Shown here: positions 1,820 through 22,610 of the stretch, in pieces | Numbering within the stretch: position 1 is the stretch's first letter | How the letters are laid out: each line of letters opens with the position of its first letter | Origin: Panorpa germanica | Lineage: Eukaryota > Arthropoda > Insecta > Mecoptera > Panorpidae | Direction of reading: 5' to 3' | Assembly (NCBI GenBank): GCA_963678705.1 | Contig: OY783214.1 | Location: 2,046,001 to 2,110,000, forward strand | DNA: 64,000 bases | The notes under the pieces: generated by a model | The model's database searches: none | What the model was told of the DNA's origin: nothing | What the model saw: the letters and a program-made list of their open reading frames with translations, nothing else | Position numbers and translations under genes: made by a program

Positions 1820-1883
1820 CCAAATATTCAGCTTCTTCAAGGTTGTCCGTAGCCAAAATTATTGTTCGTGACGACGCCTCTAA
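1820..1883 (-). CDS. ABCA-like transporter, exon j (NBD1 H-loop region)
   Basis: This is the most downstream exon recovered. On the minus strand an AG acceptor precedes 1883 and a strong donor GTAAGT follows 1820. The 64-bp exon enters in phase 0 and leaves one base. It encodes 21 residues beginning L-E-A-S-S-R-T-I-I-L and ending E-E-A-E-Y-L. These match the ABCA segment R-T-I-I-L-T-T-H-x-x-[DE]-E-A-[DE]-x-L-G that follows Walker B. The switch histidine of the H-loop is aspartate here (A-T-D-N-L-E-E-A). The preceding exon (1976-2045) ends in phase 0, so the join is clean. The next exon was not found and may lie left of the window. Confidence is high for the family and moderate that the gene is functional. 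Confidence 0.85.
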
Positions 1884-1975
1884 CTACCAAGTTAATAAAA
1901 TAAATTAAACAATTTTTCAAAATAATTAGTATTTTAGAAATTGTAATTATCTAGTTTATTGGATCTTTGAGTTAC

Positions 1976-2045
1976 CAAAATTTGATTCCAGATCTCTTGA
2001 GTTCCTTCCGAAAAACCAGCTGTTGGCTTAAAATACAGAATCACC
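1976..2045 (-). CDS. ABCA-like transporter, exon i (NBD1 Walker B region)
   Basis: Acceptor TTACAG precedes 2045 and donor GTAACT follows 1976. The 70-bp exon supplies one base completing the lysine codon split from exon h, then 23 codons ending in phase 0. The segment reads V-I-L-Y-F-K-P-T-A-G and, eight residues later, W-N-Q-I-L. It lines up residue for residue with the ABCA Walker B/D-loop block K-V-V-x-L-D-E-P-T-[SA]-G...[IL]-W-x-x-[IL]-L. The Walker B aspartate is Phe and the catalytic glutamate is Lys. Length, phase and position between the signature and H-loop exons all agree, which makes a chance match unlikely. Confidence 0.85.
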
Positions 2046-3571
2046 CTGTAATTTTGACATAGTATTATTGATTTTTTTAATATTTTACTATATTTGGTAT
2101 GTATAGTATTATAAATATTATTATTCAATTTGTTGTGACGTAGCCGATTAGAGCACATGCTCAAATAGATTTCATTATTCTTGGTATTTTAGGATCCGTC
2201 CGATGCATGCGTTAAAGTCCTGGGATGCTTGCTTAAGAAAATGCATAAGAAGGAGAGATGGTAAGAAAATAAAGTTCTACTTATTACAAGTTATTTAGGA
2301 AAATTTAAAAAACACATGAAACAAAAAGTATTGGAGATATCATTTGTATTCTTTTTACTTTACATAGGGGTAACATTTAAAATTTTATTTAATTACTTTT
2401 TGAATATGATATCTTGAAGGTGGCCTCTGTTCTAGTCAATACATTTGTGGAGCCGAAATCGGAAGTTTCACTCCACTTTGTGCATGTCTGTGTTTGTGTT
2501 TGCAAAAGCAGCATGAGTATTGTTTCTATTGGACGATTGGTGTACACCAAGGATTTGAGATATCGCAAAATTCGCAGGACGCTTAGTCCGGCGAACGTCA
2601 TGAGGCAAGGTTTTCGTTAAAGACATCACAAATATATTGGACAAAGTGCCATTTTTAAATAGCGTGTATTAAGTTTTTGCAGTACATGGTCGTTACTAAA
2701 CTAATTGTACAAACATCGTTATTCTCTCCAAGGATTAATGTCGCGTTTCAAATAAGAAAGTTCTTGCAGCCTGTATAATAGTGTTTTATAAAAGTGATTT
2801 CTGAAACATTTCATAAAATTATGAATATATAATACGAAGATGATATGGTCCATATAAATAATCTAGTTTTACAAAATCAAAGACTACGACCGTATGTGGT
2901 ATGCAAGTTATATTTCAGAGAGCCGAAAATAATAACAAATTTCTATTTTGGTAGATTAATTTACTTTATTAATTTTCTTAGTCGTAGTTTAAAAATGTTG
3001 TGCTAGTTAATATACCGTTATAGTTGTTTATAGGTTGTAAGTATTTGTTCACATTAGTATTAGAATAAAACATATATTTATAAGCTATGTTTTATTTATC
3101 AAATTCAAATTCTAAGTTACACTGGCTTCTTTTTAGTTTTTGTTATTAATAATTCATGTAAGTCATTAATATTATTTGTTAGTTGGTTAATTATTTTAAT
3201 ACACTAATTTATAAATATTTTGTTATTCTTTATTTTACTTGTTTCGTTTGTTTTTTATTTGTTTTTGAATTTTTTTTGTTTTTTGAATTAATACCTTTAT
3301 TTCTTTCTTTTGCATTTTGTGCTTTTATGTTTTTTTTTTTTACTTTTGTGTCATAAATCTAATTTGTGGCTATGCCAATTGTATGCGACATAAATTAACT
3401 GTTACTGAAACAAAATAACACATACAGCTATTGTGGTGTTATTCTAGAAATTATCTAGAATTGTATGTAACAAATGTATTTAAATTCGCTTTTTTGTTTA
3501 GGTAATCATTCTTGAACAAGGTCGTTATGGTCACGAGGGAATGTTTCTATTTCTCATAAGCACTGCCTTAG
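2046..3571. other. Intron of the ABCA-like gene, left part
   Basis: AT-rich intronic sequence with poly-T stretches around 3240-3350. There are small open frames at 2389-2620 on both strands, but they have no recognisable domain and overlap a GT-rich patch. No mobile element could be assigned. Confidence 0.5.
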
Positions 3572-3669
3572 AAATAAACTTGTCATAAAATTTATACTAC
3601 AAATAGGGCACGTCCGGACAGGCTTATTATAAGTTTATACCTGGTATAAATTTTATAACAGGTTTATTT
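3572..3669. repeat. Short inverted repeat (hairpin or mini-MITE-like)
   Basis: The arms AAATAAACTTGTCATAAAAT (from 3572) and its near-complement ending GGTTTATTTG (to about 3669) differ at only a few positions and enclose about 50 bp. No clear target duplication was seen, so it could be a short MITE or a simple palindrome. Confidence 0.4.
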
Positions 3670-4139
3670 GTAAAGCGATTACATTTTAATTTTATAGTTA
3701 TTTTTAATGGTCCTATTTTATTTATGTTGAAATGTGTTGAAAGTTATTTGTGTCAACATAATTTTGGAGTTACTTGATATTTCAATTTATTATTTATAAT
3801 AGATTTAAATAATGAGTTCATTTGGATAAAATTGTGCTTTTATATTAAGTAAATATAACAAAAATATAGGTATTACGTAAAAGTATGTTACCTTGCACAT
3901 AGTGTGTTTTATGAGAACAAAATACAATCCCGGGATTATAGCCTGTATTCTGGTTTTGAAAATTCTAAGATGTAAAACTCCTAATTAACAAGAAGTGTTT
4001 CTACCAGTCAATTAAAATAACGTCCAGGTACTTAAATCAAATGAAGTAAAATTTTTGTGAATATACCTAGATAGGCGTCTTACACATATATTTATGAAAC
4101 ATAAGGCCTTAGGGCTACAAATTTGTAAGCTTAACATTC

Positions 4140-4490
4140 TCATTTATGGATAGAAAACAAATTTATAATATATAAATGTATACTTAAACAAGTATTAGCT
4201 TATGGGTTACAATTATGGGGAACATGAGCTAGCTCAAACGTTCAGATCTTGCAAAGATTCCAATCAAAAAACATTACGCATTATGCGCCATGGTATATTA
4301 CAAATGAAAGACTGCACCACGATCTTGTAATATATACAGTGAGACAAGAAATAACTACTCGAACGGTTAAATGCAAAGACCGAGTTGTGAACCATCCAAA
4401 TATATTGGTCACCAACTTAATGGGAGACAGGACTACCTTTAGCAGACTGAAGAGGAGAGCGCCTGAAGAATTAATAAAATAAATACGAAT
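4140..4490 (+). mobile_element. Jockey-type LINE, C-terminal ORF2 remnant
   Basis: The plus-strand frame reads L-A-Y-G-L-Q-L-W-G-T, a stop, then I-L-Q-R-F-Q-S-K and finally R-V-V-N-H-P-N followed by L-K-R-R-A-P. These are the conserved C-terminal blocks of jockey ORF2 after the RT domain (Y-G-[IL]-Q-L-W-G; Q-R-F-Q-[NS]-K; H-P-N). The last 77 codons (4249-4482) are open. The downstream LTR element begins about 120 bp after it. Confidence 0.7.
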
Positions 4491-4611
4491 TATAGCATAT
4501 TATAAAATATTTACTCATAGCAACATCCTGCAGTCGCATAGTAAAATAAATAAAAACAGTCACAAGATGCTTATAAAGAAAGGTACAAAATGTAATAAAT
4601 AATGATATAAA

Positions 4612-5480
4612 TGTGGGATTATTTTTTAAGATTAGTTTTAAGTGTAAATATAATTAGTTTTAAGAAATAGAAATATAAAGTAACCTGTAAATTAGGTTAA
4701 GAACTTGAATAATATTAGGGTAATATTATAATGTACTCTCGACACCAGATGCTTGCCATAACATCTGAAGAGGTGTGTGAACCCCGAAACTATCAAACAC
4801 AGACACTCGCTATAGTGTATGCTGACGAGTCATTACGGGCACATGTCGGCACAAGCAACAGTCGTGTTCAGAGTTAGTTAAAAATGGCGACAGAATGTAC
4901 ATAGGTTGTGCGATGTTGTTATTTGTTAGTTTAAATATTATTAACGGGTGTTAATATAATTTAATAAGTGTAACATTGTTATTAGTTGTAACATATGTTA
5001 GAGCTATGCAGCAAATGTAATGTTAAATACTAGGTTGTATTATCATTATAAAATCATTGTGTTGATAACTATGAACAATTGAAATTGCGTATTACGTGTT
5101 AACACGCAAAACACTGTGAAGAGACATTATAATCTAAGTATTGTATTTTAATCAAGTGTATTTTCTTAGTGAAGTTAATTACGATTAATTCGCTTTATTC
5201 AGATGTAATTGTATAATTTTGTGTAAATATTAAATGAACTATCAATATTCAAATCATGTGTTTGCTCGTATAAAAGAAACTATATTGTTATGTTATACTG
5301 CAAATTGATCGTCTCAACGGATAGTTGTAGAAATTACCTACAAATTGGTGGCTCATTTGGGATTGAATAGTTCTATGCTGCAAATTAGGATCTCAACAGG
5401 TGGTTGTATATTCTAACCTGCAAAGTGGAGTCTAAACCGGGATGGTATTAGATTCAAAAACTACTAATGTAGATATAAAA
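4612..5480 (+). repeat. 5' LTR of internally deleted LTR retrotransposon
   Basis: An 869-bp direct repeat that matches 7941-8809 with no indels and about seven substitutions (roughly 0.8%). It begins TGTGGGATT. A TATAAAAG box at about 5269 is a plausible promoter. The 3' ~200 bp contains several degenerate copies of a CAAATTGG-n-GG-CTC-n-ACCGGGAT-like motif. This motif also occurs, best conserved, just inside the element at about 5487-5510, where a primer-binding site is expected. No clear flanking target duplication was found. Confidence 0.9.
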
Positions 5481-5500
5481 GTCTATAAATTGGGGGCTCT

Positions 5501-5716
5501 CAACCGGGATAAGGGCGAAATCAAAAATATTCAGTTAAGATTATTTTTAACCTTAGAACCAGACTTATTGATCAACCGGGATAAGGGCGAAATCAAAAAT
5601 ATTCAGTTAAGATTATTTTTAACCTTAGAACCAGACTTATTGATCAACGGGATAAGGGCGAAACCAAAAATATTCAGTTAAGATTATTTTTAACCTTAGA
5701 ATCAGAACAGTTGACC
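5501..5716 (+). repeat. Three 72-bp tandem repeats in the element leader
   Basis: Units start at 5501, 5573 and 5645, each beginning CAACCGGGATAAGGGCGAAA (the third unit is one base variant). They lie between the 5' LTR and the gag start. The repeats duplicate the sequence directly downstream of the presumed primer-binding region and might affect packaging or priming. They produce a spurious open frame. Confidence 0.9.
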
Positions 5717-5774
5717 AGCGGAATCAAGAGGAAAACTTAGTGTACAGTTTGCTCATTAAAGTAATTGTACAGTA

Positions 5775-7898
5775 GTGAAAATTATAACAATGACACAAGA
5801 ATTAGACAATTTGTCAGTGGCAGAGTTACGACAGGAACTTAATTTTGTTGGACTTAGTCAGCGTGGGAATCGTGCTGAATTATTGTCAAGAATGAACTCG
5901 TTTAATAGCCGAGTCGGTGAACAGAATAATAGGTCTGTAAACAATAAAACAGTCAATAAAACTAATTATACATTTTTAGATTTAGAATTGGCTTTACCTA
6001 AATATGATGGGCTTAAAAATGTTAGATTATGGGTTAAACAATTTGATGATTTCTGTGACCAGGCAGAAATAGATACAAAATACAGATATTTGTATGCCAG
6101 GAGATTGTTGACTGATACAGCAAAACAATTTGTTAATTTCGAAACCAGGATAATAAAGTGGGATACATTTAAATCGTATTTGATTGAAGAATTTGATACG
6201 AGTTTAAATAGCGCACAGGTTCACAAAATGCTTGAAGAAAGGGTGAAGAAAACAGGTGAAAGTATTCGTCAATATGTGTATGATATTTTAGATATAGCTC
6301 GACAAGCAGACGTCGAAGAAGCAGCTATTATGGATTATATCATAGCAGGCATTCGCGACAGTGCAGCTAACAAAGTAATACTTTATGGAGCTGAGAATAT
6401 TGGACAACTTAGACGTAAGCTGGAACAATATGAAAAAATAAAAATGGATACCCAGGACTATGATAGGAGATCTAGGCCAGGTACCAAAACTAAAGTTGGG
6501 ACAACAGGTGAGAAGATTAAATGTTTTAATTGTGGTTCGTTATCACACTCATCTAAAGTGTGTCCTGATAAAGACAAGGGTTATAAATGTTTTAATTGTG
6601 GTAATTATGGACATGTTAGTCGAAACTGTAATACTAAAATAAAAACTGTTAAAGCGGAGCATAATGTTATGAAAGTAGAAATGATAAAATCAATTTGTGT
6701 TAATAACAGGAGTAATGTAAATGCTTTAATAGATACTGGTAGTGATTTATCAGCAGTGCGCGAAGATTATTTTAAAACATTAAAGAATGTTAAATTAAAT
6801 GACTCTGAAATAACAATACGTTGTTTGTCAAACTCTAGAGTAAATTCTTTAGGTAGAATTAAATTGGACATTGAAATTGATTCAGAACATTACGTAGGTT
6901 ATTTTGAAGTGTTACCATCTCATGCAATGCATATGAACATGGTGTTAGGATTAGACATTATAGCTAAAGCTAAAGTAGTTATTGATAAAACAGGTGTTAA
7001 ATTTCATAAACTTTATAACGATAAAGATGAAAATGAAAGTGAGGTTAAACAATTAATGACAATGAAAATAGACTATGGTGATAAAGAAAGTGATCTAAAC
7101 TTATCTCACATAAGCGATAAAATTGTTGTTAATAAAACACCTGAGTCAGTGGACAATGACAAACGAAAAGAGTTACGCAATTCTGAAAGTGAAAAGACAA
7201 TTACATTGAAAATTGATACTGCTATATTTTCTAGACCGCTTAGACTACCACCTGCAGATCGACTAGTTGTTGGAGAGCAGCTGGGTGAAGGGTTAGAAAA
7301 GGATGTCATACAGGCAGCCCAGGAAATGAACGACCTAGGTTGTGCAATGAAACAAGGCAATGTTCGTCTATCTAAGGATAAGGTAAAAGCAGCTAAGCAT
7401 TTTCCGAAGCCGAAGAAGACGCAACAAGCAAAGAATTATACAAGGAAATGTATAACAGAAAATGAATTGAAGATTGGAGTTAAAATGAAAACCAAACAAG
7501 ACACTGTTCGTTCCTCGAAGGATAAGGACAAAGCCGTTAAGCATTTTCCGAAGCCGAAGAAGACGATACAAGCAGAAGAAATACAAAATGAGTTTGTAGA
7601 AAAACGCAAGAAGCTGAGAGAAGAGGATAAAGGAATTATTCTAAAAATTCAGCAGGAAAACAGGACTAGCTACAATAGAAAATGTAAAGCACCAAGAAAG
7701 TATACACTGAACAGTTTGGTGGCCATACAACGAACACAATTTGCAACGGGAGCTAAAGTTAAAGCTAAATTTTTGGGACCATACAAAATAACGAGAATTA
7801 AAGGAAATGATCGTTATGACGTGGAGAAAGCAGAAGAGTGTGAAGGACCAATAAGGACTTCTACATCAGCAGACATGATGAAACCATGGGCAGGATGA
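5775..7898 (+). CDS. Mosaic Gag-protease-(deleted pol) polyprotein, 707 aa
   Basis: The first ATG is at 5775; an ATG a few codons on is also possible. In order it shows: an N-terminal SAP-like helix pair (residues ~5-45, L-S-V-A-E-L-R-Q-E-L...G-N-R-A-E-L-L); a retrotransposon Gag core (~60-220); two CCHC zinc knuckles (~249-262, ~272-285: C-F-N-C-G-x-x-x-H-x-x-x-x-C); and an aspartic-protease motif L-I-D-T-G-S (~317). Then come the first residues of RT (R-P-L-R-L-P-P-A-D-R), two copies of an RT-thumb-type segment S-K-D-K-x-K-A-x-K-H-F-P-K-P-K-K (~533 and ~582), and the C-terminal integrase tail. RT palm, RNase H and the integrase core are absent, yet the frame stays open. With near-identical LTRs this looks like a recently mobile non-autonomous element helped in trans. 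Confidence 0.85.
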   Translation: MKIITMTQELDNLSVAELRQELNFVGLSQRGNRAELLSRMNSFNSRVGEQNNRSVNNKTVNKTNYTFLDLELALPKYDGLKNVRLWVKQFDDFCDQAEIDTKYRYLYARRLLTDTAKQFVNFETRIIKWDTFKSYLIEEFDTSLNSAQVHKMLEERVKKTGESIRQYVYDILDIARQADVEEAAIMDYIIAGIRDSAANKVILYGAENIGQLRRKLEQYEKIKMDTQDYDRRSRPGTKTKVGTTGEKIKCFNCGSLSHSSKVCPDKDKGYKCFNCGNYGHVSRNCNTKIKTVKAEHNVMKVEMIKSICVNNRSNVNALIDTGSDLSAVREDYFKTLKNVKLNDSEITIRCLSNSRVNSLGRIKLDIEIDSEHYVGYFEVLPSHAMHMNMVLGLDIIAKAKVVIDKTGVKFHKLYNDKDENESEVKQLMTMKIDYGDKESDLNLSHISDKIVVNKTPESVDNDKRKELRNSESEKTITLKIDTAIFSRPLRLPPADRLVVGEQLGEGLEKDVIQAAQEMNDLGCAMKQGNVRLSKDKVKAAKHFPKPKKTQQAKNYTRKCITENELKIGVKMKTKQDTVRSSKDKDKAVKHFPKPKKTIQAEEIQNEFVEKRKKLREEDKGIILKIQQENRTSYNRKCKAPRKYTLNSLVAIQRTQFATGAKVKAKFLGPYKITRIKGNDRYDVEKAEECEGPIRTSTSADMMKPWAG

Positions 7899-7927
7899 TT
7901 ATAGCAACTGAGGATAGTTACTAGTCA

Positions 7928-7940
7928 GCAGAGGCCGAGA
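7928..7940 (+). promoter_or_regulatory. Polypurine-tract-like sequence before 3' LTR
   Basis: GCAGAGGCCGAGA sits immediately upstream of the 3' LTR start TGTGGG. This is the position of the plus-strand primer in LTR retrotransposons. Confidence 0.55.
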
Positions 7941-8809
7941 TGTGGGATTATTTTTTAAGATTAGTTTTAAGTGTAAATATAATTAGTTTTAAGAAATAGA
8001 AATATAAAGTAACCTGTAAATTAGGTTAAGAACTTGAATAATATTAAGGTAATATTATAATGTACTCTCGACACCAGATGCTTGCCATAACATCTGAAGA
8101 GGTGTGTGAACCCCGAAACTCTCAAACACAGACACTCGCTATAGTGTATGCTGACGAGTCATTACAGGCACATGTCGGCACAAGCAACAGTCGTAGTCAG
8201 AGTTAGTTAAAAATGGCGACAGAATGTACATAGGTTGTGCGATGTTGTTATTTGTTAGTTTATATATTATTAACGGGTGTTAATATAATTTAATAAGTGT
8301 AACATTGTTATTAGTTGTAACATATGTTAGAGCTATGCAGCAAATGTAATGTTAAATACTTGGTTGTATTATCATTATAAAATCATTGTGTTGATAACTA
8401 TGAACAATTGAAATTGCGTATTACGTGTTAACACGCAAAACACTGTGAAGAGACATTATAATCTAAGTATTGTATTTTAATCAAGTGTATTTTCTTAGTG
8501 AAGTTAATTACGATTAATTCGCTTTATTCAGATGTAATTGTATAATTTTGTGTAAATATTAAATGAACTATCAATATTCAAATCATGTGTTTGCTCGTAT
8601 AAAAGAAACTATATTGTTATGTTATACTGCAAATTGATCGTCTCAACGGATAGTTGTAGAAATTACCTACAAATTGGTGGCTCATTTGGGATTGAATAGT
8701 TCTATGCTGCAAATTAGGATCTCAACAGGTGGTTGTATATTCTAACCTGCAAAGTGGAGTCTAAACCGGGATGGTATTAGATTCAAAAACTACTAATGTA
8801 GATATAAAA
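7941..8809 (+). repeat. 3' LTR of internally deleted LTR retrotransposon
   Basis: The 869-bp partner of 4612-5480, same length and orientation. The pair defines an element of about 4.2 kb inside the intron between ABCA exons h and i. Confidence 0.9.
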
Positions 8810-9264
8810 ACCTACATGAATTACATATATAATATAACTAACGAAATATGTTATATTAAGAGAAACTCTAGAATCATTGCATAGATTATTAGGGCAATAT
8901 ATAAAAGTTTTGTTGGGGATAATAAGAAAACAGCATACATAAGTGCAGCAGAAATGATTTAGAAGATTGAGGAAGTGTGGTATGTGGGTGAAATAGACCA
9001 GGTAAGTGAGGAACTTGAATGATCGTGAGATTTTCGAAAGAAAATAAAGATAGTAGAATGTAGGGACTGTTGTTGCAGATAGGAAAGGAAAAATGGAGGA
9101 GTGAACGAAGCAAATGGATGGCGAAAGATTAAAGGAGAAACAGGAATATTAAAAAGAAGGAGAAAATTTGAAGTGTAAAGAAATATAATATTGTAAAAAG
9201 ATTATTAGGCCGTTAGTCGTATACGATGGAGAAACACCTTACATTACAAAATTTAGATACTTAC
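8810..9264. other. Intron with purine-rich stretch
   Basis: Purine-rich on the plus strand (about 8930-9180), resembling in composition the 3' part of the second LINE family at 15.6-16.2 kb. No domain could be read with confidence. Confidence 0.35.
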
Positions 9265-9419
9265 TTTGAATCTCCAGCACGGGATAACGCAATGTCGAAA
9301 TTTTTTTTATCCATGGTGTTAAGGCTCTCAAAGTAGTCGTTACGTTTCTTCTTCAATTCATAAAGATTAAGAAGCTGCGTGGCTGAATCCTCTGCATCTT
9401 TATACGTCTTTCCCTTTAA
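9265..9419 (-). CDS. ABCA-like transporter, exon h (NBD1 signature region)
   Basis: An AG acceptor precedes 9419 and the strong donor GTAAGTAT follows 9265. The 155-bp exon starts in phase 0 and leaves two bases (AA). It encodes L-K-G-K-T-Y-K-D-A-E, then K-K-K-R-N-D-Y-F-E-S-L-N-T-M-D, and ends R-A-G-D-S. This aligns without gaps to the ABCA block L-K-G-x...K-R-x...L-S-G-G-M-x-R-R-L...G-G-S-K. The ABC signature L-S-G-G-M is L-N-T-M-D here, so the ATP-sandwich contact should be lost. The preceding exon ends F-F-A-M, and with L-K-G restores the family's F-F-A-x-L-K-G. Confidence 0.85.
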
Positions 9420-9529
9420 CTTGGATAAACGTATTTCAATTAAAATAAATATTTTTACATAGTGATTATATTTTTCTTTTTTATTTTATTTTGACGTAAG
9501 CTTATTCGGCATACTCGCATAATATTGGG

Positions 9530-10290
9530 AAATAATTATGAAATAAATATAATTCGTTTAAGAAATAATTATTATCAAGAACCATGTATAAATAGGTTAA
9601 GAACATTGCTAATATTAGGCGATATTTGAATGAAATAAGCGCTGCTTTGTATATGAATTGTGAACGCAGCTAAGCCGTTCGCTCTCTCATACCTCGGTGC
9701 ACGAGTAAAAGAACTGATTTCCAAGCAGTTCACTAAGCGGTATATGCATATGGACACGCGGCAATCACTTATATAGTACAGTTCACAGAGCTATATGCCG
9801 TCATTTTACATTCAGGAAAATGTTATTAACTAGTTGTTAAAATCATGGTGAATTGTAAATTCAGTTTAACTTTATTATTAGGTGTAATATTGTTATTGTT
9901 ATCGCCGTATATAGTAATAGTTTTGCAAACAAATGTAATGTTAATATCTAGTTGTTTTATCATTGTGATTTGTAAAATCGGGTACTATTACAACTACGCA
10001 TATTGTTGTGATATGCAAGCGTTTGTCATATGGTTTACAAACAAATGTAATGTTATTTAACTAAGTGTTAATATCAATGTGAATCATTTTTGACATATTA
10101 ATGTAAATGTAATTGTTTTTTGTGAAATAATTAAATGAAGTACAATTAATTAAGGAGTTATATGTTAACCTATCCTTAATAAGAACTATATCGTATATGT
10201 GGGCTCAACTCAGGATTTATTTAACAACAAACTGCTATTAAACCACAGCAGGCAAATCTAACTCATACTCACCAAAGTGTAAGTGAGACC
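9530..10290 (+). mobile_element. Diverged solo LTR or LTR remnant, related to the 4612 element
   Basis: Several landmarks of the 869-bp LTR recur in the same order: TTAAGAAATA, AGGTTAAGAAC...AATATTAGG, repeated AAATGTAATGTTA...TAGTTGT, and the TTTGTG...TTAAATGAA near the end. At about 10200-10215 TGGGCTCAACTCAGGAT resembles the primer-site-like motif of the intact element. It is AT-rich and strongly diverged, and no internal coding region follows. The call is an inference from order and motif similarity. Confidence 0.5.
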
Positions 10291-10319
10291 CACATGCATG
10301 TAATTTACAAAATATGTTA

Positions 10320-10787
10320 TATTTCCACATAGCAACGGATCTACGATTTTTTCGAACTAGGCCAGAACTTTACATTGGCACCCCCCTCTTCCTCTACATT
10401 TCCCAAAAAAAAAATTATTTTTTTAACTAAATGTGTTCTTAGTGCCTTTCGGAATTTGGCGCCCTTATGAAGTATTACGCGCCCGGATCAAATACACCTG
10501 TTTTCTCACTTTAGATCCACCTTTGTTTCCCTATTCTTATTATCTTATCGATTAACTTAAAAGTTTGACACAAAGTTGCATTCGAATAAGCGCGTGTTTT
10601 TAAAGTAAAATGAAATTTTGACACAACGTTGTTGAATTCCAATTTGCGCGAGATTTTAAAAATTAAATTTATTTCTATCGGTCTTTCCAGTTAACGTAAT
10701 CCATATGTGTTTGTACGTGTCTTTTATTTACTTTCCCGTTCATTTCATATCACACTCAGCCAGCAAAGCGTGGCTGGGTTTAGCTAG
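10320..10787 (+). mobile_element. Possible Helitron-like (non-autonomous) 3' end
   Basis: At 10758-10775 a small hairpin has arms AGCCA and TGGCT, followed by GGGTTTAG and then CTAG (10784-10787) before a T. Helitron 3' ends have a GC-rich hairpin a few bases upstream of a terminal CTRR and insert between A and T. The 5' end is uncertain (a TCTACGA occurs at about 10331). No Rep/helicase is present. Confidence 0.3.
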
Positions 10788-10861
10788 TTATATATAAAAC
10801 AATGTCCCACTGGCCGAGTAAATTTTTATTAAATATGCGAAAAGAAAATATATTTCTTTAG

Positions 10862-11105: not shown

Positions 11106-11269
11106 GATTGGTCGCTTGAAATGTCGGCCAGCAAGAAGAAGTTGAGTTTTGGCAAGAGATGGAAGTCTAAGAAATCTAAATATGGGTAATAGGGTAGATG
11201 CTCTAGAACTTTATAGTGTAAAACTTTTAATTTTTATATCGACAAGTAACTTTTGTGAATAGAAAGCCA

Positions 11270-13560: not shown

Positions 13561-13704
13561 TTTATTATCTTTACATCTTTACACACTGTATGTCATTTAA
13601 GCAGGACAGATTGTAATAATCTATAATAATCAAATAAAGAAAATTAATAAATTGAAGAACAATCTTGAATATGATAAAACAAAAACTGGAAAATCAAATT
13701 AAAT

Positions 13705-14035: not shown

Positions 14036-14164
14036 TAGTTTTTGTTGAATTTTAGATTGTACATTTTTTTCTTACTTTTGTTATACTAAACTATATTATA
14101 GAATCTATTTTGATAACCACCAGATTTTAAATTATTTTTATAGTATATTAAATAAAAGTCATAC

Positions 14165-14319
14165 CATTGCAAAAAATATAAGCGTTTCCTGTAGAGTGAG
14201 ACCAGTCATAAACATTCCACTTAACGAAAAAAATCCAACTAAGTTTCTAACTCTGTTTATATCGTCCTTAACATATGTGCCCTGAACAGTGAGGATACCT
14301 TCATGTGGTAACCACATAC
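14165..14319 (-). CDS. ABCA-like transporter, exon g (NBD1 Q-loop region)
   Basis: Acceptor TTATCAG precedes 14319 and donor GTATGA follows 14165. The 155-bp exon brings two bases completing a glycine codon split from exon f, then 51 codons ending in phase 0. It reads M-W-L-P-H-E-G-I-L, then N-R-V-R-N-L-V-G-F-F-S-L-S-G-M-F and L-T-L-Q-E-T-L-I-F-F-A-M. This matches the ABCA stretch G-x-x-x-P-T-S-G...V-R...L-G-V-C-P-Q-H...L-T-V-x-E-H-L-x-F-F-A. In this alignment the Q-loop glutamine is Leu. The exon reads convincingly as part of the same gene because both phases fit its neighbours exactly. Confidence 0.85.
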
Positions 14320-14735
14320 CTGATAATGTGTTATAAAAATAAATAAATATGTAGACGATTTTCATGGTTAGTAATTCAGCAAATAGCGGGTGATCTAGTC
14401 ATCCGTCACAACAGTCACAACGTCACAATGTAATTTCGTCTATATTATCTGTTTAATATTTTAATGCATTATTTAAAATAATGATAATGATAATGCTAAC
14501 TGTAAAGAAGTTCCTTTTTGGAATATTTGCTCTTAAGTATAGCGGAACAATATGTTTACATCATATTACAATCTAGTCTATTAGACTGATATGCAATTTA
14601 ACGTTAACATAATATAAACATTAAAGGTTTTGCTCTTCAGCATACCTTATTGTATGATGTGAAATATTTAACTCAATGTGTAACCCAACTTTGAAAAAAA
14701 GTTAGTAGAAATAATAAATAAATTGATAATAGTTT
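14320..14735. other. AT-rich intron
   Basis: No element assigned before the dispersed repeat that starts near 14736. Confidence 0.4.
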
Positions 14736-14862
14736 ATATTTTGTTGAAAAAGTAATTTCTTTTAGTCAGTTTGTATGAAAAGTTATTTGTCGTTTTATGT
14801 AAAATTAATACAGATGACTTAAATATTTCAATTTAAAAATGGAATTAAAATTTGAAATGAAA
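14736..14862 (+). repeat. Dispersed repeat, copy 1 (partner at 56190-56300)
   Basis: Shared landmarks in order are TATTTTGTTGAAAAA, TTTTCTTTTAGTCA-TTT-TATGAAAA-TTATTT, and AAATATTT-AATTTAAAAAT-GAATTAA. Same strand at both sites; family unknown. Confidence 0.6.
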
Positions 14863-15429
14863 TTCCTGTCACACACAAGTAACAGTAATCGCTTGTGACT
14901 ACTGTTCGCACTGGATAAAATGGAATCTTAATATATAATGTATTTAGTAAAACATAAATTTAGATTCATTTCAATTTTAATTAAAGATAAAATTTTATAT
15001 GTTAAATAAAATAATATAATACTGTACTTAAACAAAATCTAGTAATATTAAATTGATTTTATTTTATAGTTACTTTAAAAGTCTTTATTTCTCGGTAAGG
15101 AATATTTAGGATTTTATTAACCTTAAAAAAATCTCATTAAATAGTTTTATGATAATAGTAATGGACAAAAAAGACTTATTTTTCAAAAGTATCAAAAATA
15201 GATCACAGGGTGTTTTACATGTACGTAAAATTATTTACATGGAGTCGTTAAGTTAGGATGTCTTATAAGTAAGCTAATGCGTAAAATATTAAATTAACTT
15301 CTCAAAATTAAGTAAAATAGGTAATATAACATTGTATGTGTCTTACTATTTAACACTATTTACTTTTATACTATTAAATTGTTCGAAGTCGGATTCAGAA
15401 CCGTGGTCGGATGTTTTTTTGCCGACACC
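14863..15429. other. AT-rich intron
   Basis: Nothing recognised beyond low-complexity AT sequence. Confidence 0.4.
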
Positions 15430-16260
15430 CACAAACACAACACAAATAATGGGACTGGTGGTAAATGCAAATGTGGTGTTAGAAATGGTATACGGTTGTG
15501 TGAAAAATATTTTCGGAATTTTACAAGAAAAAAAGTTTTGGTTATTTGACAGACTAATTGGAAGCATGATCCTGTATGAAGCGGAAATATAAGGATGGAA
15601 GATATGAAGAATGTTGGAGGCCAGAAATACAGGACAAATACTCCATAACTAAGACTCCACGATACTTAAAGGAAGGAGTGAAAATAAATACACATTGAGG
15701 AAAAAAGCAGAAATGAGAGGATCTAATGAGAGTGGTGGGTAAAAAAATCAGAAATGAAAAGTATTCAAGGTGGGAAAAACAGAGAAGAAGGTATTACGAA
15801 AGAGATAGCACGGTGGAGAAAAACTAAGAAAGGTACGAAATTTGATAAAGGAAAGAGATATAGAGGTCAAAAACAGAATACGATCAAGAAGATAAATGAA
15901 GCAAAGTACAACACCAAATATAGTTATGATCATGCAAGAAAATGCTCAATACCTGTAAAAACTGGGAAATGAAGAAAAGAAAATGAGCGCGAGGCTTAGA
16001 CTAAGGAATTTAGAAAAGGGCAGTAGATATTAGATTGCAGAGAAAGAAAAATTATGTAGTGTCTGACAAGCAAGTTGAAAAATAAGAATACTTAGAACAC
16101 AATAGAAGTTGAAAAGTGAAGTAGACTTGATAGAAATAGCAATAAGGAGGGAATATAATGTTAGTATAAAATTAGAAGTAAGCGAAGGAAAATAATAAAC
16201 AAGCGACAAATTGAAAAAATGAAGAAAAAAAAAGAATAAAAGACTAGATATGGACTTTTA
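15430..16260 (+). mobile_element. Second LINE family, 3' part, plus strand
   Basis: The frame at 15430-15592 ends W-L-F-D-R-L-I-G-S-M-I-L-Y-E-A-E-I, stop, G-W-K. This matches the post-RT block F-D-R-L-[IV]-x-S-x-x-x-Y-[GA]-x-E-I-W-G-W-K seen on the minus strand at 17.8 and 30.0 kb. A purine-rich, lysine/glutamate-coding tail (15600-16260) follows, broken by stops. This family is distinct from the jockey copies. Confidence 0.6.
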
Positions 16261-16546
16261 AGAATGAAAATGTTATATAATTAATTTTTTATTATTATTC
16301 ATTTACGTAATTAGAACTGGTCTAATGACCATCCAAAAATATGTATGGTATGTAAAATGAATTTAAAATGAAATGTAGTCTCTGAAATGAATGCGAAGCA
16401 ATGTAATGTATAACAGCAAATATGTTAAATTAATGATTACAACTTTAGTACATCAATATTACATAATAAGATCCACAATTTATAAAACCACATAATGTTT
16501 AATTGTCATGACTTCGAGTAATGACCCCAATATAATATAAACTTAC

Positions 16547-16657
16547 CACAAAATAAATTAAACATTGTTTCCAAGCATTCATCACTTGCAATTATGGCAG
16601 TAATCTCATTCGTATAAAATGTCATTGATAAATTCTTGATGATATATCTTCGCAGTC
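16547..16657 (-). CDS. ABCA-like transporter, exon f (NBD1 Walker A region)
   Basis: Acceptor TTTTTTCCAG precedes 16657 and donor GTAAGTTT follows 16547. The 111-bp exon gives two bases, 36 codons and one base. It reads I-I-K-N-L-S-M-T-F-Y-T-N-E-I-T-A-I-I-A-S, then D-E-C-L-E-T and N-L-F-C. The family equivalent is V-x-N-L-S-L-x-[FM]-Y-x-[GN]-x-I-T-A-L-L-G-H-N-G-A-G-K-T-T...L-x-G. The flanks are well conserved, but the P-loop itself is gone: the lysine is Glu and the glycines are Ala, Glu and Leu, with one residue fewer. ATP binding by this domain should be abolished or very different. Confidence 0.87.
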
Positions 16658-16884
16658 CTGGAAAAAATATCATTAGAAGATCTTTATTGAAAATATGTTT
16701 TTCTTTGTAATACCAAAATGACACATAGTTTCAACGTTACTGTATTATCATTTTGATATTATCAAAAGAATAGTGTGTTACTAATAACAAATGGTGGAAG
16801 GTGGGGGGAGGGAAACCGCTGAGAAGGACATGTTGGAATTGTGATTTATTTTTAAGAATATAAGGAGCTAATACTAATTCGGTT

Positions 16885-18060
16885 TTAAAACATTATTTTC
16901 TTATTTTAATGTTCTGCCATTTGGCATTACATTTTTGTGCTTTAACTCAATTATTTACATGTCGTTATGCTTAATTTAATTTTGATCCTTATTAAATCTA
17001 AACATTCTCACTCATTCCAAAGGAAAAAATATATATTTATAAATTTATCCTTATAAAAATAAAAACAAAACTGTTACTACTACTACTTCGCTCCTCCTGC
17101 TACTTTTCCTCCTTATTTTACTCTGCCTTATCTTTTCTCGTTCCTTTTCTCTATCTCCGCCATACACCTCTTCCCTTCACTGCCACCCTTCATTAACTGT
17201 CTATTATTATTTTGGTAAATACCTTTCTCTCATATAAAAACTTAATATGCTTCAATGTTTCTATCTTCGTTCACCCTGCATATCCTTTCCTCGCTACTTG
17301 CCCAGTATCTGTTTTCTTTCTCCTCGTTTCCAAATCTAAATCTGGCAATCCTTCTTATGTTTTTTGTGTCTTTTTCTCTTAAGTTTTGTGGTATCTTTCT
17401 CCCAAATCTTTTTATATCTTTCGTTCTAATTGCTGTTCTCAATTTTTTTCATTCTTTTTTGTTGTTTTATCTCTCTGTCACTTTCCTTAGCTCCTCTTTC
17501 ACACTTGTGCCTTCTAATTTTCTTTTGCCTGTCTCCTCTGCCGCCAATCCATTCTTTTCACAATACTCTCTTATCTTTTTTGAGCCTCCTCTCCCACTTT
17601 CTTTTCTACTCTCCTTCCTAATTTTTCCTAATATTTCGATTTCAGAGTAACTCATTTTCTCCCAGAACTTGACTGCTCTCCTTCCTGCTTCTACTTTTAT
17701 CTTGTCCCTTTTTAATTCCTCCATTATCCAACCCTAGTATCCATTTATTGTTTCTCTCCTGGATTCTTTCTAATTCCTCTTTCTCCTTCCTTCCCCATAT
17801 CTCTGTTCCGTACATCATCATACTCGTTATTAGTCTATCAAACATCAATAGCCTCTTCTGCATATCTGCACCAAACATATATTCTCCTATTTTTTACACC
17901 CTACTCATTGCTAAATCCGCCTTCTTTACTACCGCCCTTATCAGCACCTCTTCTCCATTGTTTTCTTTAAATGTGCACCCTAGAAACCAAATTCCTCTAC
18001 TTCCTCAATGGCATCTGTTTTAAATTTCCACTTTGTCTTTATCTTTTTTTCTACCTCTTT
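16885..18060 (-). mobile_element. Second LINE family, 3' part, minus strand (copy 1)
   Basis: On the minus strand, from 17878 downward, an open frame reads M-F-G-A-D-M-Q-K-R-L-L-M-F-D-R-L-I and then M-M-Y-G-T-E-I-W-G. It is followed by a long Lys/Glu/Arg-rich stretch. The 3' end near 16890 carries a segment (CATTTGGCATTACATTTTTG on the plus strand) repeated almost exactly at about 29307 in copy 2. 5'-truncated, with frameshifts. Confidence 0.7.
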
Positions 18061-18999
18061 TTGGAATACCATGATTTTTTGGTTTTAAAACATACAAAAT
18101 TGTTTACTTTGGGCCTTTAATGCCAAATATTATTTTATATTAATCTTGGCTAAAATAAAGGTTTTTTAAAATTTATTATGCACTCTAAACTTATAATTTA
18201 CTTCATTTGAGCCCTGTATTAAATATTGTGCAGTACCCTGTCACTGATCAAATCCAATTACCCTCCCTACAGTTCCCAATTTAGAAAAAAAAAACAATGG
18301 GCACTTTTTACTGTAAAACTTTTTACGTAAAAGATTGAGAGTGGAAATTTTCATTGCGAACATATTTCAAAACTCATAAATTGAAAACAGTAAAAATTAG
18401 GGGCTAGGTAGTGATTCAAATTTTGAATTGTGTAATAATTTATTACCTAATTAATAAAAAATTATATATTGAAATAAATATTCCCAAATTTAAAAAAGAA
18501 TTGGTCAAATAACGCATAAATTTAAAGAAATTAAAAAATTATATATTTTTCAAAAGAACGCGTATTTATTTATTAAACGACAATTATCCGGTATCAAAAT
18601 CGTATATATAGTATCTTCTAAACGGCGCCTTTAAAGATTTTCAAATTTTGATATTATATAGATGACGAATTCCTAAGACCTTCTATGTCCCTGAAATATT
18701 CACTAAATTTTGCTGGAAAAATTTGAAAATTCCAAAACAAACTTTTGCAAATATCTAAACTAGAAAAGATAAAAAACTAAAATTTTAGGTATGTATTGAG
18801 ATTATAATTAAGCACAATTTCCAATAATTGGAAATCAGAAATTTAAGATCAGTAGCGGCAAGAATTTCTGGAGGCAATGTTAGAATAGAGCTAGAATGTT
18901 AAAATTTCAGATGTGAGCTTATTCGTCAGTTTAATCTGTCCAAATAATAGTTCTGACATCATGTTTTAAAAAATAGTTGTTTACGAATGTGAAGGCCTC
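18061..18999. repeat. AT-rich repeat region with dispersed AGTAGCGGC motif
   Basis: Contains GATCAGTAGCGGCAAGAATT at about 18848, related to CTCAGTAGCGGCGCGAATTT at 22793 and, inverted, to about 31866-31890. TTTAGGTATGTATTGAGA at about 18785 also recurs inverted at about 31706. The stretch TTGGTCAAATAACGCATAAA at 18500 resembles 56160. It probably belongs to an unrecognised repeat family. Confidence 0.45.
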
Positions 19000-19029
19000 T
19001 TCATTTTGTTAAAATGTTTTCTAAGATTA

Positions 19030-19480
19030 AGTTTGAGCAAAAAAATTATAAAAAATCAATGAAGGCTAGATCTGATGAATTCGTGAATTTGTGCCACGTT
19101 TTACATTGCTCCTTCCAAATTGTTGTTGTATCTGGCTTTCTAATACTTAAATCGTCAATGAATGTATGACAAACACGTTCTTTTTGAATACCTACATCTT
19201 TCTAATATTTAATAATAACTTTGCTTTAATATTAACTTTGCAAAGTGTTGCTTAGTCCAGTTTTCCTTCGAGATGCACACAGCGCCTGCTTCTAACCCGA
19301 ATTCGACGGATGTCTAGCATTGTTTTCAATGTTAGTAAATATAGTTTTACGCCGTATTAAACAATCATTTAACAAAGCCGGTACGAATTTGTTTAAAGGC
19401 AACTGTCCAAAATTTTACGATACAAGTGATGGTGCAAAGTCCCCGGAAACAGCATCCATTACTTTTAAAAAAGCAATTGC
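19030..19480 (-). pseudogene. Unidentified protein-like remnant
   Basis: On the minus strand two stretches look coding: about 19205-19040 (contains H-T-F-I-D-D-L-S-I-R-K-P and I-W-K-E-Q-C-K-T-W-H) and about 19410-19290 (P-L-N-K-F-V-P-A-L-L-N-D-C-L-I-R-R-K). They are separated by frame changes. The look is that of a decayed transposase, but no family motif was recognised. Confidence 0.3.
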
Positions 19481-19546
19481 ATAACATATTACGCAAGAAT
19501 TTAATGATGTTTGATATTCAAAATTTTCTATCGATTTACCACAAAA

Positions 19547-19790
19547 GAGTCCACGGTAGTGCAGTGGTTAGTATACCTATCTACAATACCTAAGGTCGTG
19601 CGATCGAATCCATCGTACTCAACATCAAGGATTCTTCACATACCAAGAACAATGTGAAATATCGGGGGAAGTCTAACCACCAGTGAAGAAAATGCCCTAA
19701 CGCATGGCGGCGAGTAGAGGTGAAATAAAATAGGCTCCGCGACCACAAAAAAATTAACACAAAAATAAAAAAATTAAAATGTAGGAGAAA
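19547..19790 (+). mobile_element. tRNA-derived SINE (copy B)
   Basis: The head reads GTAGTGCAGTGGTTAGTA (A-box region, typical of tRNA) and about 40 bp later GTGCGATCGAATCC (B-box, GGTTCGAATC-like). The body continues to an A-rich tail at about 19745-19790. The head is of the same general type as the truncated piece at 57063 but differs from copy A at 1364. Confidence 0.7.
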
Positions 19791-19859
19791 AAGATAAAAA
19801 TTACGGAACAGGGGCCTAGAACCATAAAACCGTTACGTAGCGTAAGTGCTCGGGCAGGC

Positions 19860-22440
19860 TCCTATGGATCGTCACAAAGTTACTCCCCAGCGAGTTCGCT
19901 TAGGAACCAGGCCGAATCGTCTGTTCTTGCTACTGGAACAACAACAATAGGGAATGATAACCCATTCAGAAAAAATAATAAAATGAATAGGACACCACCC
20001 AAACAAAATCCATCTCGAAACGAGAAAACAAAGAAGATACAGGATTCGCAACAATTGCTTGCAAACAATAACCCTCAATCACAATAAGCCGAGACTGAAA
20101 TAACAGTAAGTCGGCTCCAAACAGAAAATGAAAGAAGTCTATTGCGCAGTCTACAAGTGGCTTTAAACGCCAATACAGACATGCAGGGAAAAACTGACTT
20201 GCTTGTAAAAAGAATTTCTTATATAGAATAAGTAATAAACACTTCTGATACAAAGAAGACTCAAGAAAATCCTACGGAAACTAATTACAAAAAAGAAGAA
20301 GAAGAACTGACCAGAAAAACAGAATGGATAGTTCAGAAAAACAACACCAGGAAGTAAAGCGAAAAGCAAATACTTCGCCTAATGTGTCACCGCAACAGTC
20401 ATCACCTAGGACAACCATCATTAGTACACCTATTAAAAGAAAACCGCATGCGCCTCCTACGATAACGGGCGAAATGTGTAACTACGATAGTATTTATATT
20501 ATATTGAGAAAGAAAAAGTGACATTCACAGCAAGAGTGCTAAATAATGGAGAAACTAAATTCAATGTACCTAAGAAAAGGCAATACAAGCTCTTACTCAG
20601 GTATTGGACAATATGAAACTAAAATGGTTTACTTATAAACATAACAGACGCGTCCAATAAGAGTGATAGCAGGCAGACTACACTCTGATTGTGCAGCACA
20701 ATCTATTATAAATGATCTCAAAGAGAAAAAATCGGACGTAATAGATGCTCTAAATGTACTACAGAGAAACACAAAGAAACCTTCACCACTTCACCATTCT
20801 TTATGCTCACATTTGACAATAAAGAAGACATAAAGACAATACTAAACGTTGTAGAAATTCTGGGGATGAGAATTAGAATGTAAACAATAAGATAATCAAC
20901 ACTAGTAGTTCAGTGTAAACGATGCCAAAGATTTGGACACACACATAAATTCGGCAACAGACAACCAAAAAGTATAAGATGTGCGGGTGCTCATCTGACA
21001 GCACAATGTAGAAAAGAGAAAGACGAACTACCAAAATGCATTAACTGCAACGAAAATCATCCCGCAAGTTATAGAGGATGCATTGTGGCAGTGGAAATAC
21101 GGAATAGATGAGGTACAAGAACGCACTTGTTTAAAGCTGAGTTACGCTTAAAATATGTACCTTATTACTGAAAGTCGCCGAAGTAATTATGCTTGCTAAA
21201 CCAGGAAAAATGCCAAACAAGAAAGCATCATACAGACAAATTTCGTTGCTTCCAATTAACGGTAAACTATGTAAAAAGTTACTACTAAAACGTTTAAAAC
21301 TGATAATAGACAGATAACAACTAATTCCAAATCATCAAGTTGGATTTTAAAGTAAACATTCTATCATCGATCAGGTACATCTAATTACCAACGTTATAGA
21401 AAAAGTTCTTGAAGAAAAGAAAATATGTTGTACTGTATTCCTAGCTGTCTCTCAGGCGTTCGACAGAGTATGGCATAAAGGCCAAGAATACAAACTGAAC
21501 AAAATGTTACCTAGACAATATTGTGAACTACAGAGTCAGAGTCAAAGTAGAAGATCAATTCTCAAGTATTAAAAATATAAACGCTAAAGTTGCACAATTA
21601 AGTGTACTAGGCCCCATCCTGTACACACTATACACCAGTGACATTACAACAAACAGTGTCACTATAATGGCATCTTTTGCAGATGATACGGCTATAATGG
21701 CGATAGCTAATAATATGCCAGAAGCAACCAAAAAAGTGCAAGAAGCCATGAACAACGTAAATGCATGGTAAAGGAAATGGAGGATTGCAATAAACAAAAC
21801 GAAATCGGTGCATGTTAATTTTACTAACAGAAGGACAAATTACTTTCCGGTACTAATAAATGACTAAGTTATTCCGTATGCGAATACAGCAAAGTATCTA
21901 GGAATGATATTAGATGCCAAACTTCGTTGGAAGGCTCATGTAAGAAAATGTACTGGCTAATGGGACGCAAATCCACTTTATCCATACATAACAAGCTAAT
22001 GCTGTATAAGCAAATATTGAAATCAGTTTGGACATATGGAATACAGCTATAGAGCTGTACTAAGAAATGCAACATCATATGCATTCAGACTTATGAAAAT
22101 AAAATTATGAGGATCGTAGTAAATGCACCTTGGTATGTCCGCAATGGCAATATACTTAGGGATCTCAAAGTAACTAAAGAAGCTAATTAAATTACAAAAA
22201 TTGCAAGAAAGAACGAGCAATGTCTCCAACACCATGTCAACGTGGAAGCGTTTCACCTGCTGCACACAGATGGACTGACAAGAAGATTAAAGAGAACTAA
22301 GCCATTTGAGCTAGTATGATGACCGACAGAAGAAGAGTATCAACAATAGTTAATACTATGACTTCAAAAATATTACCATTATTAAAATTAACTAGAAAAA
22401 ATGTTATTAAATAGTTTATATAAACTAGTTATAACAATAT
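19860..22440 (+). mobile_element. Jockey-type LINE, near full-length order but decayed
   Basis: ORF1-like coding from about 19870 includes three consecutive CCHC-type knuckles at about 20914-21080 (C-K-R-C-Q-R-F-G-H-T; R-C-A-G-A-H-L-T-A-Q-C; C-I-N-C-N-E-N-H-P). ORF2 RT remains run from about 21180. They include A-K-P-G-K, V-G-F and A-F-D-R-V-W-H blocks in changing frames, then an open piece at 21523-21771 with Q-L-S-V-L-G-P-I-L-Y and F-A-D-D-T-A-I-M, which is the catalytic F-A-D-D box. The C-terminal jockey tail follows to about 22340. Many stops and shifts are present. No endonuclease region was recognised, so an internal deletion of ORF2's 5' part is likely. Confidence 0.75.
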
Positions 22441-22486
22441 AATAGGTATAATCAAAAAAAATTAAAAAAATTACCACAAAAACTAC

Positions 22487-22610
22487 CAGCGTGATGACAA
22501 ACATTAAACAACCGTACAGCCTCTGTTGCACCAAATGCAGCTTTCTCTATATCTGCTTTTATCTTCAATCTGTGGTTAATATCAACCTTTAAAAAGAATC
22601 TCTCAGTAAC
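22487..22610 (-). CDS. ABCA-like transporter, exon e (TMD1-NBD1 linker and NBD1 start)
   Basis: Acceptor TTATTTTAG precedes 22610 and donor GTAGTT follows 22487. The 124-bp exon enters in phase 0, as the end of exon d requires, and leaves one base, as exon f requires. It encodes 41 residues ending A-F-G-A-T-E-A-V-R-L-F-N-V-C-H-H-A. This corresponds to the family's linker and first NBD strand (G-[IV]-x-[IV]-x-N-L-x-K). It was found by searching for an exon of the required phase in the 17-kb intron, and its end joins exon f so that the first NBD strand and the N-L-S-L block keep normal spacing. The N-terminal half is poorly conserved, as the linker is in this family. Confidence 0.75.

What the first reader, a model, noticed from the sequence alone, without database searches (positions are those of the whole stretch)
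1820..22610. ABCA-family transporter with every NBD1 ATPase motif replaced but the fold and frame kept
Six phase-matched exons reconstruct a full-length NBD1. Family-conserved scaffold residues remain (N-L-S, I-T-A, F-F-A-x-L-K-G, P-T-A-G, R-T-I-I-L, E-E-A-E-Y-L-G), while all catalytic motifs are gone. The Walker A lysine is Glu and its glycines are lost. The Q-loop Gln is Leu. The signature L-S-G-G-M is L-N-T-M-D. Walker B D-E is F-K. The H-loop His is Asp. Random decay would have hit scaffold and frame too. Complete motif loss with no stop, frameshift or bad splice site suggests a selected pseudo-NBD, perhaps a lineage of insect ABCA proteins relying on NBD2 alone or working as a non-transport scaffold.
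Basis: partly seen in the sequence, partly recalled or inferred. Interest (0 to 1): 0.87.

Follow-up and report, generated by a model that had tools for sequence, protein, structure and literature searches.

The report
Dead-engine ABCA transporter family in insect
An insect, probably a moth or butterfly, carries at least five copies of a membrane-pump gene whose ATP-burning parts have lost their working residues, yet natural selection keeps the protein intact, so it probably does something other than pumping.

Summary
Observation confirmed. Six minus-strand exons splice in frame into an ABCA NBD1 (best PDB match ABCA4, E 8e-27) with every ATP motif replaced. The gene reaches far outside the window: 24 exons over about 219 kb, no internal stop, phases fitting. 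Four more copies exist: three on the same contig and a compact one elsewhere (57.5% identical, TMD1-RD1). All five share the dead NBD1. Against the compact copy dN/dS is 0.20 in NBD1 (0.10-0.34), 0.175 in NBD2, 0.21 overall; among the contig copies NBD1 gives 0.13-0.26. All 45 exon copies fetched are intact. So this looks like a selected, apparently lineage-restricted family of ABCA pseudo-transporters, not a pseudogene. 'NBD2 alone drives it' is unlikely; nucleotide binding at NBD2 without a pump cycle is the best guess. Two usable protein searches found no ortholog. Transcription is untested; ECD1, ECD2 and TM12 exons were not found.

The parts
1820..1883 (-). Exon E6: LEASSRTIILATDNLEEAEYL, end of NBD1, H-loop region
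   Evidence: phase 0 to 1, AG/GT; matched in all four C11 copies and in C16
1845..1847 (-). H-loop His position, here Asp (Asp in all five copies)
1976..2045 (-). Exon E5: VILYFKPTAGFSEGTQEIWNQIL, Walker B/D-loop region
   Evidence: phase 2 to 0
2027..2032 (-). Walker B Asp-Glu position, here Phe-Lys (FK in the four C11 copies, YK in C16)
9265..9419 (-). Exon E4: LKGKTYKDAEDSATQLLNLYELKKKRNDYFESLNTMDKKNFDIALSRAGDS, signature region
   Evidence: phase 0 to 2
9309..9323 (-). ABC signature position LSGGM, here LNTMD (LNTMD/LNTME in C11 copies, LSLLE in C16)
14165..14319 (-). Exon E3: MWLPHEGILTVQGTYVKDDINRVRNLVGFFSLSGMFMTGLTLQETLIFFAM, Q-loop region
   Evidence: phase 1 to 0
14222..14236 (-). Q-loop, GFFSL; the Gln position is Leu here (Ser, Pro, Pro and Leu in copies P, Q, R and C16)
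16547..16657 (-). Exon E2: LRRYIIKNLSMTFYTNEITAIIASDECLETMFNLFC, Walker A region
   Evidence: phase 1 to 1
16566..16589 (-). Walker A position GHNGAGKTT, here ASDECLE-T with one residue deleted; Lys is Glu (Glu, Gln, Gln, Ser in P, Q, R, C16)
22475..22610 (-). Exon E1: linker between TMD1 and NBD1
   Evidence: phase 0 to 1
33632..33825 (-). Exon D: end of TMD1 (..NAFFYFCVHYYITKVHP..RRWYFPFLNL)
   Evidence: hmmsearch 2.9e-7
53250..53402 (-). Exon C: TMD1; placed by phase and order, then matched in C16 (39% identity)
53962..54196 (-). Exon B: TMD1 (EMLDIVGVPEYLRFCTRFFRIF..)
   Evidence: hmmsearch 0.0032; paralog exons
56775..56921 (-). Exon A: probable start of the TMD1 core (IEYKLFPYPIYATDEN..); acceptor clear, 3' end uncertain, not counted among the 24 exons, no paralog exon examined

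Best explanation
The window holds the middle of one member of an at least five-copy, apparently lineage-restricted family of ABCA-derived pseudo-transporters. SHOWN: parts of both transmembrane halves, both NBD-derived domains and both regulatory domains are kept in frame; NBD1 has lost its residues in all ATP motifs; NBD2 keeps a P-loop and the Walker B Asp but lacks Q-loop Gln, signature, catalytic Glu and H-loop His; the ratios of change indicate purifying selection on NBD1, NBD2 and the membrane parts; all five copies have the dead NBD1. INFERRED: the loss predates the split of the C11 and C16 copies, since they share the Walker A deletion and the new DECL, Lys and Asp residues. Since each ABC site pairs the Walker A of one NBD with the signature of the other, neither site can run a hydrolytic cycle, so the protein does not pump. 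The two NBDs are kept as structural lobes holding the TMDs and regulatory domains in an ABCA-like shape, and NBD2 probably still binds a nucleotide without turning it over. The likely role is non-pumping: a membrane scaffold or lipid/ligand-binding receptor, possibly nucleotide-sensing, or a regulatory partner of the canonical ABCA paralogs in the same genome.
For: 24 exons, 3932 coding bases, no internal stop, phases fitting. NBD2 motifs. Paralogs; 45 of 45 exon copies intact (15 of the 24 exons in each of three C11 copies; the other 9 not fetched). C16 paralog: 23 of 24 exons matched (B, C and L in part), none with a stop, same dead motifs. dN/dS against C16: NBD1 E2-E6 0.200 (0.099-0.339), NBD2 0.175 (0.103-0.271), all 1205 codons 0.208 (0.158-0.258). 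NBD1 among C11 copies 0.126-0.258; Fisher p 3.5e-9 for W-R, 0.038 for W-P. C11+C16 clade support 1.000 on a stem of 1.33. NBD2 Walker A Lys and Walker B Asp are kept in 5 of 5 copies. Canonical ABCA loci exist in the same genome.
Against: No transcript or protein evidence. No ortholog in other species in two usable protein searches. ECD1, ECD2 and TM12 exons and the 3' end of exon A were not identified, so the full protein is not shown. dN/dS of the six other exons is high in two C11 pairs (0.744 W-Q, 0.785 P-Q). NBD2 ratios among C11 copies (0.068-0.362) rest on few changes (2 to 15 per pair). In NBD2 the catalytic-against-scaffold contrast is only a trend (4 of 15 against 12 of 21, p 0.096). 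dS against C16 is above 1, so that ratio is rough. Codon scores of the true frame are better than the other frames but below zero (-0.059 bits per codon against -0.186 and -0.171). The fold was not modelled.
Confidence: 0.74

Rival explanations
1. Asymmetric but working transporter: NBD1 is a pseudo-NBD and NBD2 alone supplies slow ATP hydrolysis, as the first reader proposed (like ABC proteins with one degenerate site).
For: NBD2 keeps the P-loop Lys and LLDD in 5 of 5 copies and has dN/dS 0.175 against C16. Deviations from the consensus at the first site occur in several human ABC subfamilies, including a subset of ABCA (PMC7756269, passages).
Against: The site made by NBD2 Walker A would need NBD1's signature, which is LNTMD; NBD2's own Q-loop Gln, signature, catalytic Glu and H-loop His are also gone. 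PMC7756269 passages say that ABCB1 with both Walker B glutamates changed to Gln, Asp or Ala has the same residual ATPase activity.
Confidence: 0.12
2. Recently dying gene family: functional until lately, catalytic parts relaxed, now drifting without function.
For: No ortholog found; very long introns with transposable elements (gene about 219 kb); the non-NBD exons of pairs W-Q and P-Q have dN/dS near 0.75.
Against: All 45 exon copies fetched and the 23 C16 exons are free of stops; NBD1 dN/dS is 0.13-0.26 between copies with dS 0.04-0.26; the dead motifs are shared by copies 57.5% identical, so the loss looks old and constraint followed it. At 0.02 neutral substitutions per site 93% of simulated 667-codon ORFs already carry a stop.
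Confidence: 0.1
3. Artefact: wrong exon joins or alternative canonical NBD exons make an ordinary ABCA look degenerate.
For: Exons were joined without transcripts; exon A's 3' end and the ECD1, ECD2 and TM12 exons are missing.
Against: The compact C16 paralog has 23 of the 24 joined exons in the same order, including GH, K and R2a that were first placed mainly by phase. No canonical NBD exon was seen in the 234 kb.
Confidence: 0.04

Closest known systems
ABCA subfamily full transporters (ABCA3-like of Galleria mellonella P0001; own-genome C8:19.42M; Drosophila kikkawai P0010)
   Same: TMD-NBD-regulatory domain twice, WYFPF-like stretch before NBD1, DRIAI..G.L.C.GT.. start of RD1, RD1 and RD2; 23.7-25.1% identity over TMD1-RD1.
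   Different: All NBD1 catalytic motifs and most NBD2 motifs lost; forms its own clade with C16 on a long stem.
ABC proteins with one degenerate nucleotide-binding site (such as ABCC1, ABCC7, ABCC9, ABCB2/B3; PMC7756269, passages seen)
   Same: Catalytic residues lost while the NBD is kept.
   Different: Those keep one canonical site (from the passages and recalled); here both sites lack residues for hydrolysis, and NBD1 lacks the nucleotide-binding motifs too.
Pseudoenzymes such as pseudokinases and iRhoms (recalled, from no call)
   Same: Fold and purifying selection kept after loss of catalytic residues.
   Different: Different fold and pathway; analogy only.
Lepidopteran ABCA expansions (Plutella xylostella, 15 ABCA, 9 full and 6 half; PMC5039799, passages seen)
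   Same: Tandem ABCA duplication in Lepidoptera.
   Different: The passages seen describe no ABCA with both NBDs dead; their sequences were not examined.

Membership tests
ABCA subfamily (by descent and architecture) | Sequence homology of TMD, NBD and regulatory domains to ABCA rather than other ABC subfamilies | tested here: met
   (ABCA4, 3, 1, 7 far ahead of other ABC proteins)
ABCA subfamily (by descent and architecture) | Two TMD-NBD-RD halves in one chain | tested here: met
   order confirmed in C16; TM12 exon not found and no cDNA
ABCA subfamily (by descent and architecture) | Large extracellular domain between TM1 and TM2 | tested here: inconclusive
   probable N-terminal TM1 exon (weak hit, E 0.11) 53 kb upstream of exon A, but ECD1 exons not found
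Active ABC ATPase | Walker A, Q-loop, signature, Walker B Glu and H-loop His forming at least one composite site | tested here: not met
   NBD1; NBD2
ABC transporter with one degenerate site | The second site is canonical | tested here: not met
   NBD2 lacks Q, SGG, E and H; NBD1 signature is LNTMD
Pseudogene | Stops, frameshifts or broken splice sites; dN/dS near 1 | tested here: not met
   (exons examined only)
Maintained pseudoenzyme | Catalytic residues lost, fold kept, purifying selection | tested here: met
   the fold is inferred from alignment, not modelled
Maintained pseudoenzyme | Expressed protein with a non-catalytic role | not testable with these tools
   no RNA-seq or proteomics on hand

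The most novel reading that the evidence does not exclude
A family of ABC full transporters in which both ATP sites are catalytically dead has been kept and duplicated as non-pumping membrane proteins: NBD1 a purely structural lobe, NBD2 a nucleotide sensor, the whole acting as scaffold, receptor or passive gated lipid conduit. It would be an ABC counterpart of the pseudokinases.
Probability: 0.55. Interest if true: 0.85.

Novelty: new variant of a known kind. Interest (0 to 1): 0.78.

Why it matters
ABC proteins with one dead site are well known, but they keep one working engine. A selected, duplicated ABCA family with neither engine working would show that the ABC scaffold can be kept for something other than ATP-driven transport, and gives a ready system (a compact C16 gene of about 20 kb plus long duplicates) to test what an ABCA does without hydrolysis.

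Tried and rejected
Tried without result: protein search padded with X but without the region option, so its words came from the first 500 residues, largely padding (942 candidates, no hit); scan of flanks with human ABCA4 NBD2 (the stretch with NBD2 had not been fetched then); a first codon-usage control whose training set held stops (discarded, redone); ECD1, ECD2 and TM12 exons (a TM12-like stretch at C11:1958458-1958303 has no convincing splice frame and is not claimed). Considered and rejected: pseudogene, exon mis-joining, canonical exon set nearby, NBD2-only engine (see rivals). The '1 TAG' that one search reports in copy R's last exon is not inside the exon as read (0 internal stops). 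For the alignments a regular expression found a canonical Walker A plus signature pair in 16 of the 17 proteins (not in P0014) and a second pair in 7; for the counts three near-duplicate references of NBD1 and one of NBD2 were dropped (13 and 6 left). The references include fungal and plant ABCA proteins.

Structure prediction was not requested: its rule admits proteins read letter for letter from the window or certain loci, and a spliced protein seemed outside it.

Papers: six searches listed no report that I could recognise from title or abstract start of an ABC transporter family with both NBDs dead; PMC6882327, PMC7756269 and PMC5039799 were seen as passages only, all others as listings.
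Full report
Observation. Best PDB relatives are ABCA4, ABCA3, ABCA1 and ABCA7 NBD1. Pfam ABC_tran stays under its cut-off (19.4 of 25 bits). Walker A GHNGAGKTT is ASDECLE-T, Q-loop Gln is Leu, signature LSGGM is LNTMD, Walker B DE is FK and the H-loop His is Asp.

Is the pattern more than chance? Among NBD1 columns at least 90% invariant in 13 reference ABCA NBD1s (from the hits, near-duplicates dropped), 2 of 16 catalytic residues are kept against 13 of 23 others (p 0.0077); at full invariance 0 of 12 against 7 of 13 (p 0.005). A neutral simulation shows that losing this share of residues costs about 45-48 stops in 667 codons; already at 0.02 substitutions per site only 7% of runs have no stop. 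The real exons have none, while the other two frames of the same exons have 97 and 98. Exons were chosen with an eye to open frames, so this control is strongest for those found by homology. A codon model trained on a canonical ABCA of the same genome (L032) prefers the true frame in 17 of 24 exons; its mean score is -0.059 bits per codon against -0.186 and -0.171 for the other frames, and 2 of 5000 random sets of stop-free windows score as high.

The gene beyond the window. The window is C11:2046001-2110000 of a 464 Mb assembly. Flanks were fetched and searched with an ABCA profile. 24 exons were placed, 3932 coding bases. The first has an in-frame ATG at C11:2155865, just upstream of the acceptor used in the count, so that acceptor may not be a splice site; the stop is at 1936750, giving about 219 kb. 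All 24 have AG before and 23 of 23 have GT after (the last ends in the stop). The listed junctions fit in phase, also across three gaps where exons are missing (ECD1 with exon A, ECD2, TM12), where a fit has a one-in-three chance. The introns in the window hold transposable elements.

NBD2. It lies at C11:1952738-1951983 and 1939011-1938850, outside the window. Walker A GATNSGKS and Walker B LILLDD remain; the Gln of the Q-loop is Tyr, the signature is LTSDL, the catalytic Glu is Asp and the H-loop His is Gly. The contrast catalytic against scaffold there is 4 of 15 against 12 of 21 (p 0.096), a trend only. In ABC proteins each site uses the Walker A of one NBD and the signature of the other (established knowledge), so neither site here has a full set.

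Paralogs. A search of the own genome with the assembled protein and cDNA of E1-F found three more copies on C11 (P on the + strand, 2216549-2454807; Q 1678790-1489429 and R 1330732-1148940 on the - strand) and one compact copy on C16 (3662397-3642734). For P, Q and R, 15 of the 24 exons were fetched: 45 of 45 have the same length, the expected splice dinucleotides (or stop) and no internal stop. For C16, 23 of 24 exons (all but the N-terminal one, which lies beyond the stretch fetched; B, C and L matched in part) were found in order, 39-73% identical, without a stop. This also supports exons first placed mainly by phase. C16 shares the dead NBD1 (SNDECLST, CPLQG, LSLLE, FYKP, ASDCFEEAEYL), including the deletion in the Walker A loop, and a dead NBD2 (GATNSGKT, CPEVS, VKSDL, LLDD, LTTN). 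P, Q and R share the NBD2 changes that lie in the exons fetched (Tyr in the Q-loop, LTSDL, LLDD, and Gly at the H-loop).

Selection. Nei-Gojobori against C16, 1205 codons: dN 0.289, dS 1.387, ratio 0.208 (bootstrap 0.158-0.258). NBD1 E2-E6 0.200 (0.099-0.339), NBD1 E1-E6 0.257 (0.160-0.399), NBD2 0.175 (0.103-0.271), TMD1 0.294, TMD2/ECD2 0.215, RD2 0.211; RD1 synonymous sites saturated. Among the four C11 copies, where NBD1 dS is 0.04-0.26 and not saturated, NBD1 gives 0.126-0.258 in 6 of 6 pairs (Fisher p 0.038 for W-P to 3.5e-9 for W-R, four of the six pairs tested). NBD2 gives 0.068-0.362 on 2 to 15 changes per pair. The other six exons give 0.350-0.785, highest in W-Q and P-Q. All 15 exons together give 0.260-0.418. 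Short intron flanks differ by 3.8-9.4% from the window copy, less than NBD1 dS in W-Q and W-R, so gene conversion or mosaic ages among copies are likely, and flank length (22 bases a side) is small.

Placement. FastTree on TMD1-RD1 puts C11 and C16 together (1.000) on a stem of 1.33, nearest to a Drosophila ABCA (P0010, support 0.815; 0.904 without C16), with tip branches of 0.33 and 0.40. Identity of the C11 gene to the ten database proteins and the own C8 gene in that alignment is 19-25%. Long-branch attraction is possible. The loss of the motifs most simply sits on the long stem, followed by constrained evolution. Two usable searches of 5.8 billion proteins found no close relative (15 hits at 20-27% identity, 2 plant ABCA hits); the family may be unannotated elsewhere or restricted.

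How it probably works. Shown: dead motifs in both NBDs, intact frames and order, ratios of change that mean purifying selection. Inferred: no ATP-driven pumping; NBD1 as a structural lobe; NBD2 binding a nucleotide, since its P-loop Lys and Walker B Asp are kept in 5 of 5 copies; a role as scaffold, receptor or partner of canonical ABCA proteins, several loci of which the genome also has (one read with the NBD motifs in place).

Known or new. One-site degeneracy is known, also in some ABCA (PMC7756269, passages). I found no report of a selected ABC family with both sites dead in six searches, which cover open-licence papers only and were judged from listings.

Noticed in passing
window 36698-50861: Two long + strand ORFs of 1719 aa (38375-43534 and 45193-50352) sit in a direct repeat: 7346 bases are identical at an offset of 6818, as in two tandem LTR retrotransposon copies sharing an LTR, or an assembly duplication. 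The family label BEL/Pao is recalled, not tested.
   Followed up: partly
window 57794-63785, - strand: Row of retroelement-like ORFs (62109-63785 with weak gag/protease matches under the cut-offs, pol-like pieces down to 59287 by eye, and a 512 aa ORF 57794-59332 with no Pfam match) resembling an LTR element with an env-like gene, in an intron of the gene.
   Followed up: partly
window 5760-7898, + strand: 712 aa open frame with SAP (2.6e-7) and zinc knuckle matches and a protease match just under its cut-off: a gag-like protein with a SAP domain in front.
   Followed up: partly
G000:C12:4820051-4823444, - strand: ABCA-like locus in two very long open frames (717 and 831 aa), so it looks poor in introns.
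   Followed up: no
G000:C1:531956-543389 and G000:C7:24346-36571: Two ABCA loci with the same or nearly the same scores on two contigs, 0.5 Mb and 24 kb from the contig starts: recent duplication or assembly redundancy.
   Followed up: no
G000:C18:12815001-12875000 (L023-L028): Tandem cluster of ABC genes with canonical-looking NBD motifs; the label ABCC-like is recalled.
   Followed up: no
C11 copies W, P, Q, R against C16: From exon B to the last exon the C11 copies span about 163, 238, 189 and 182 kb, the C16 copy about 20 kb, with the same exons; the introns grew about tenfold in the C11 array (or shrank in C16).
   Followed up: no
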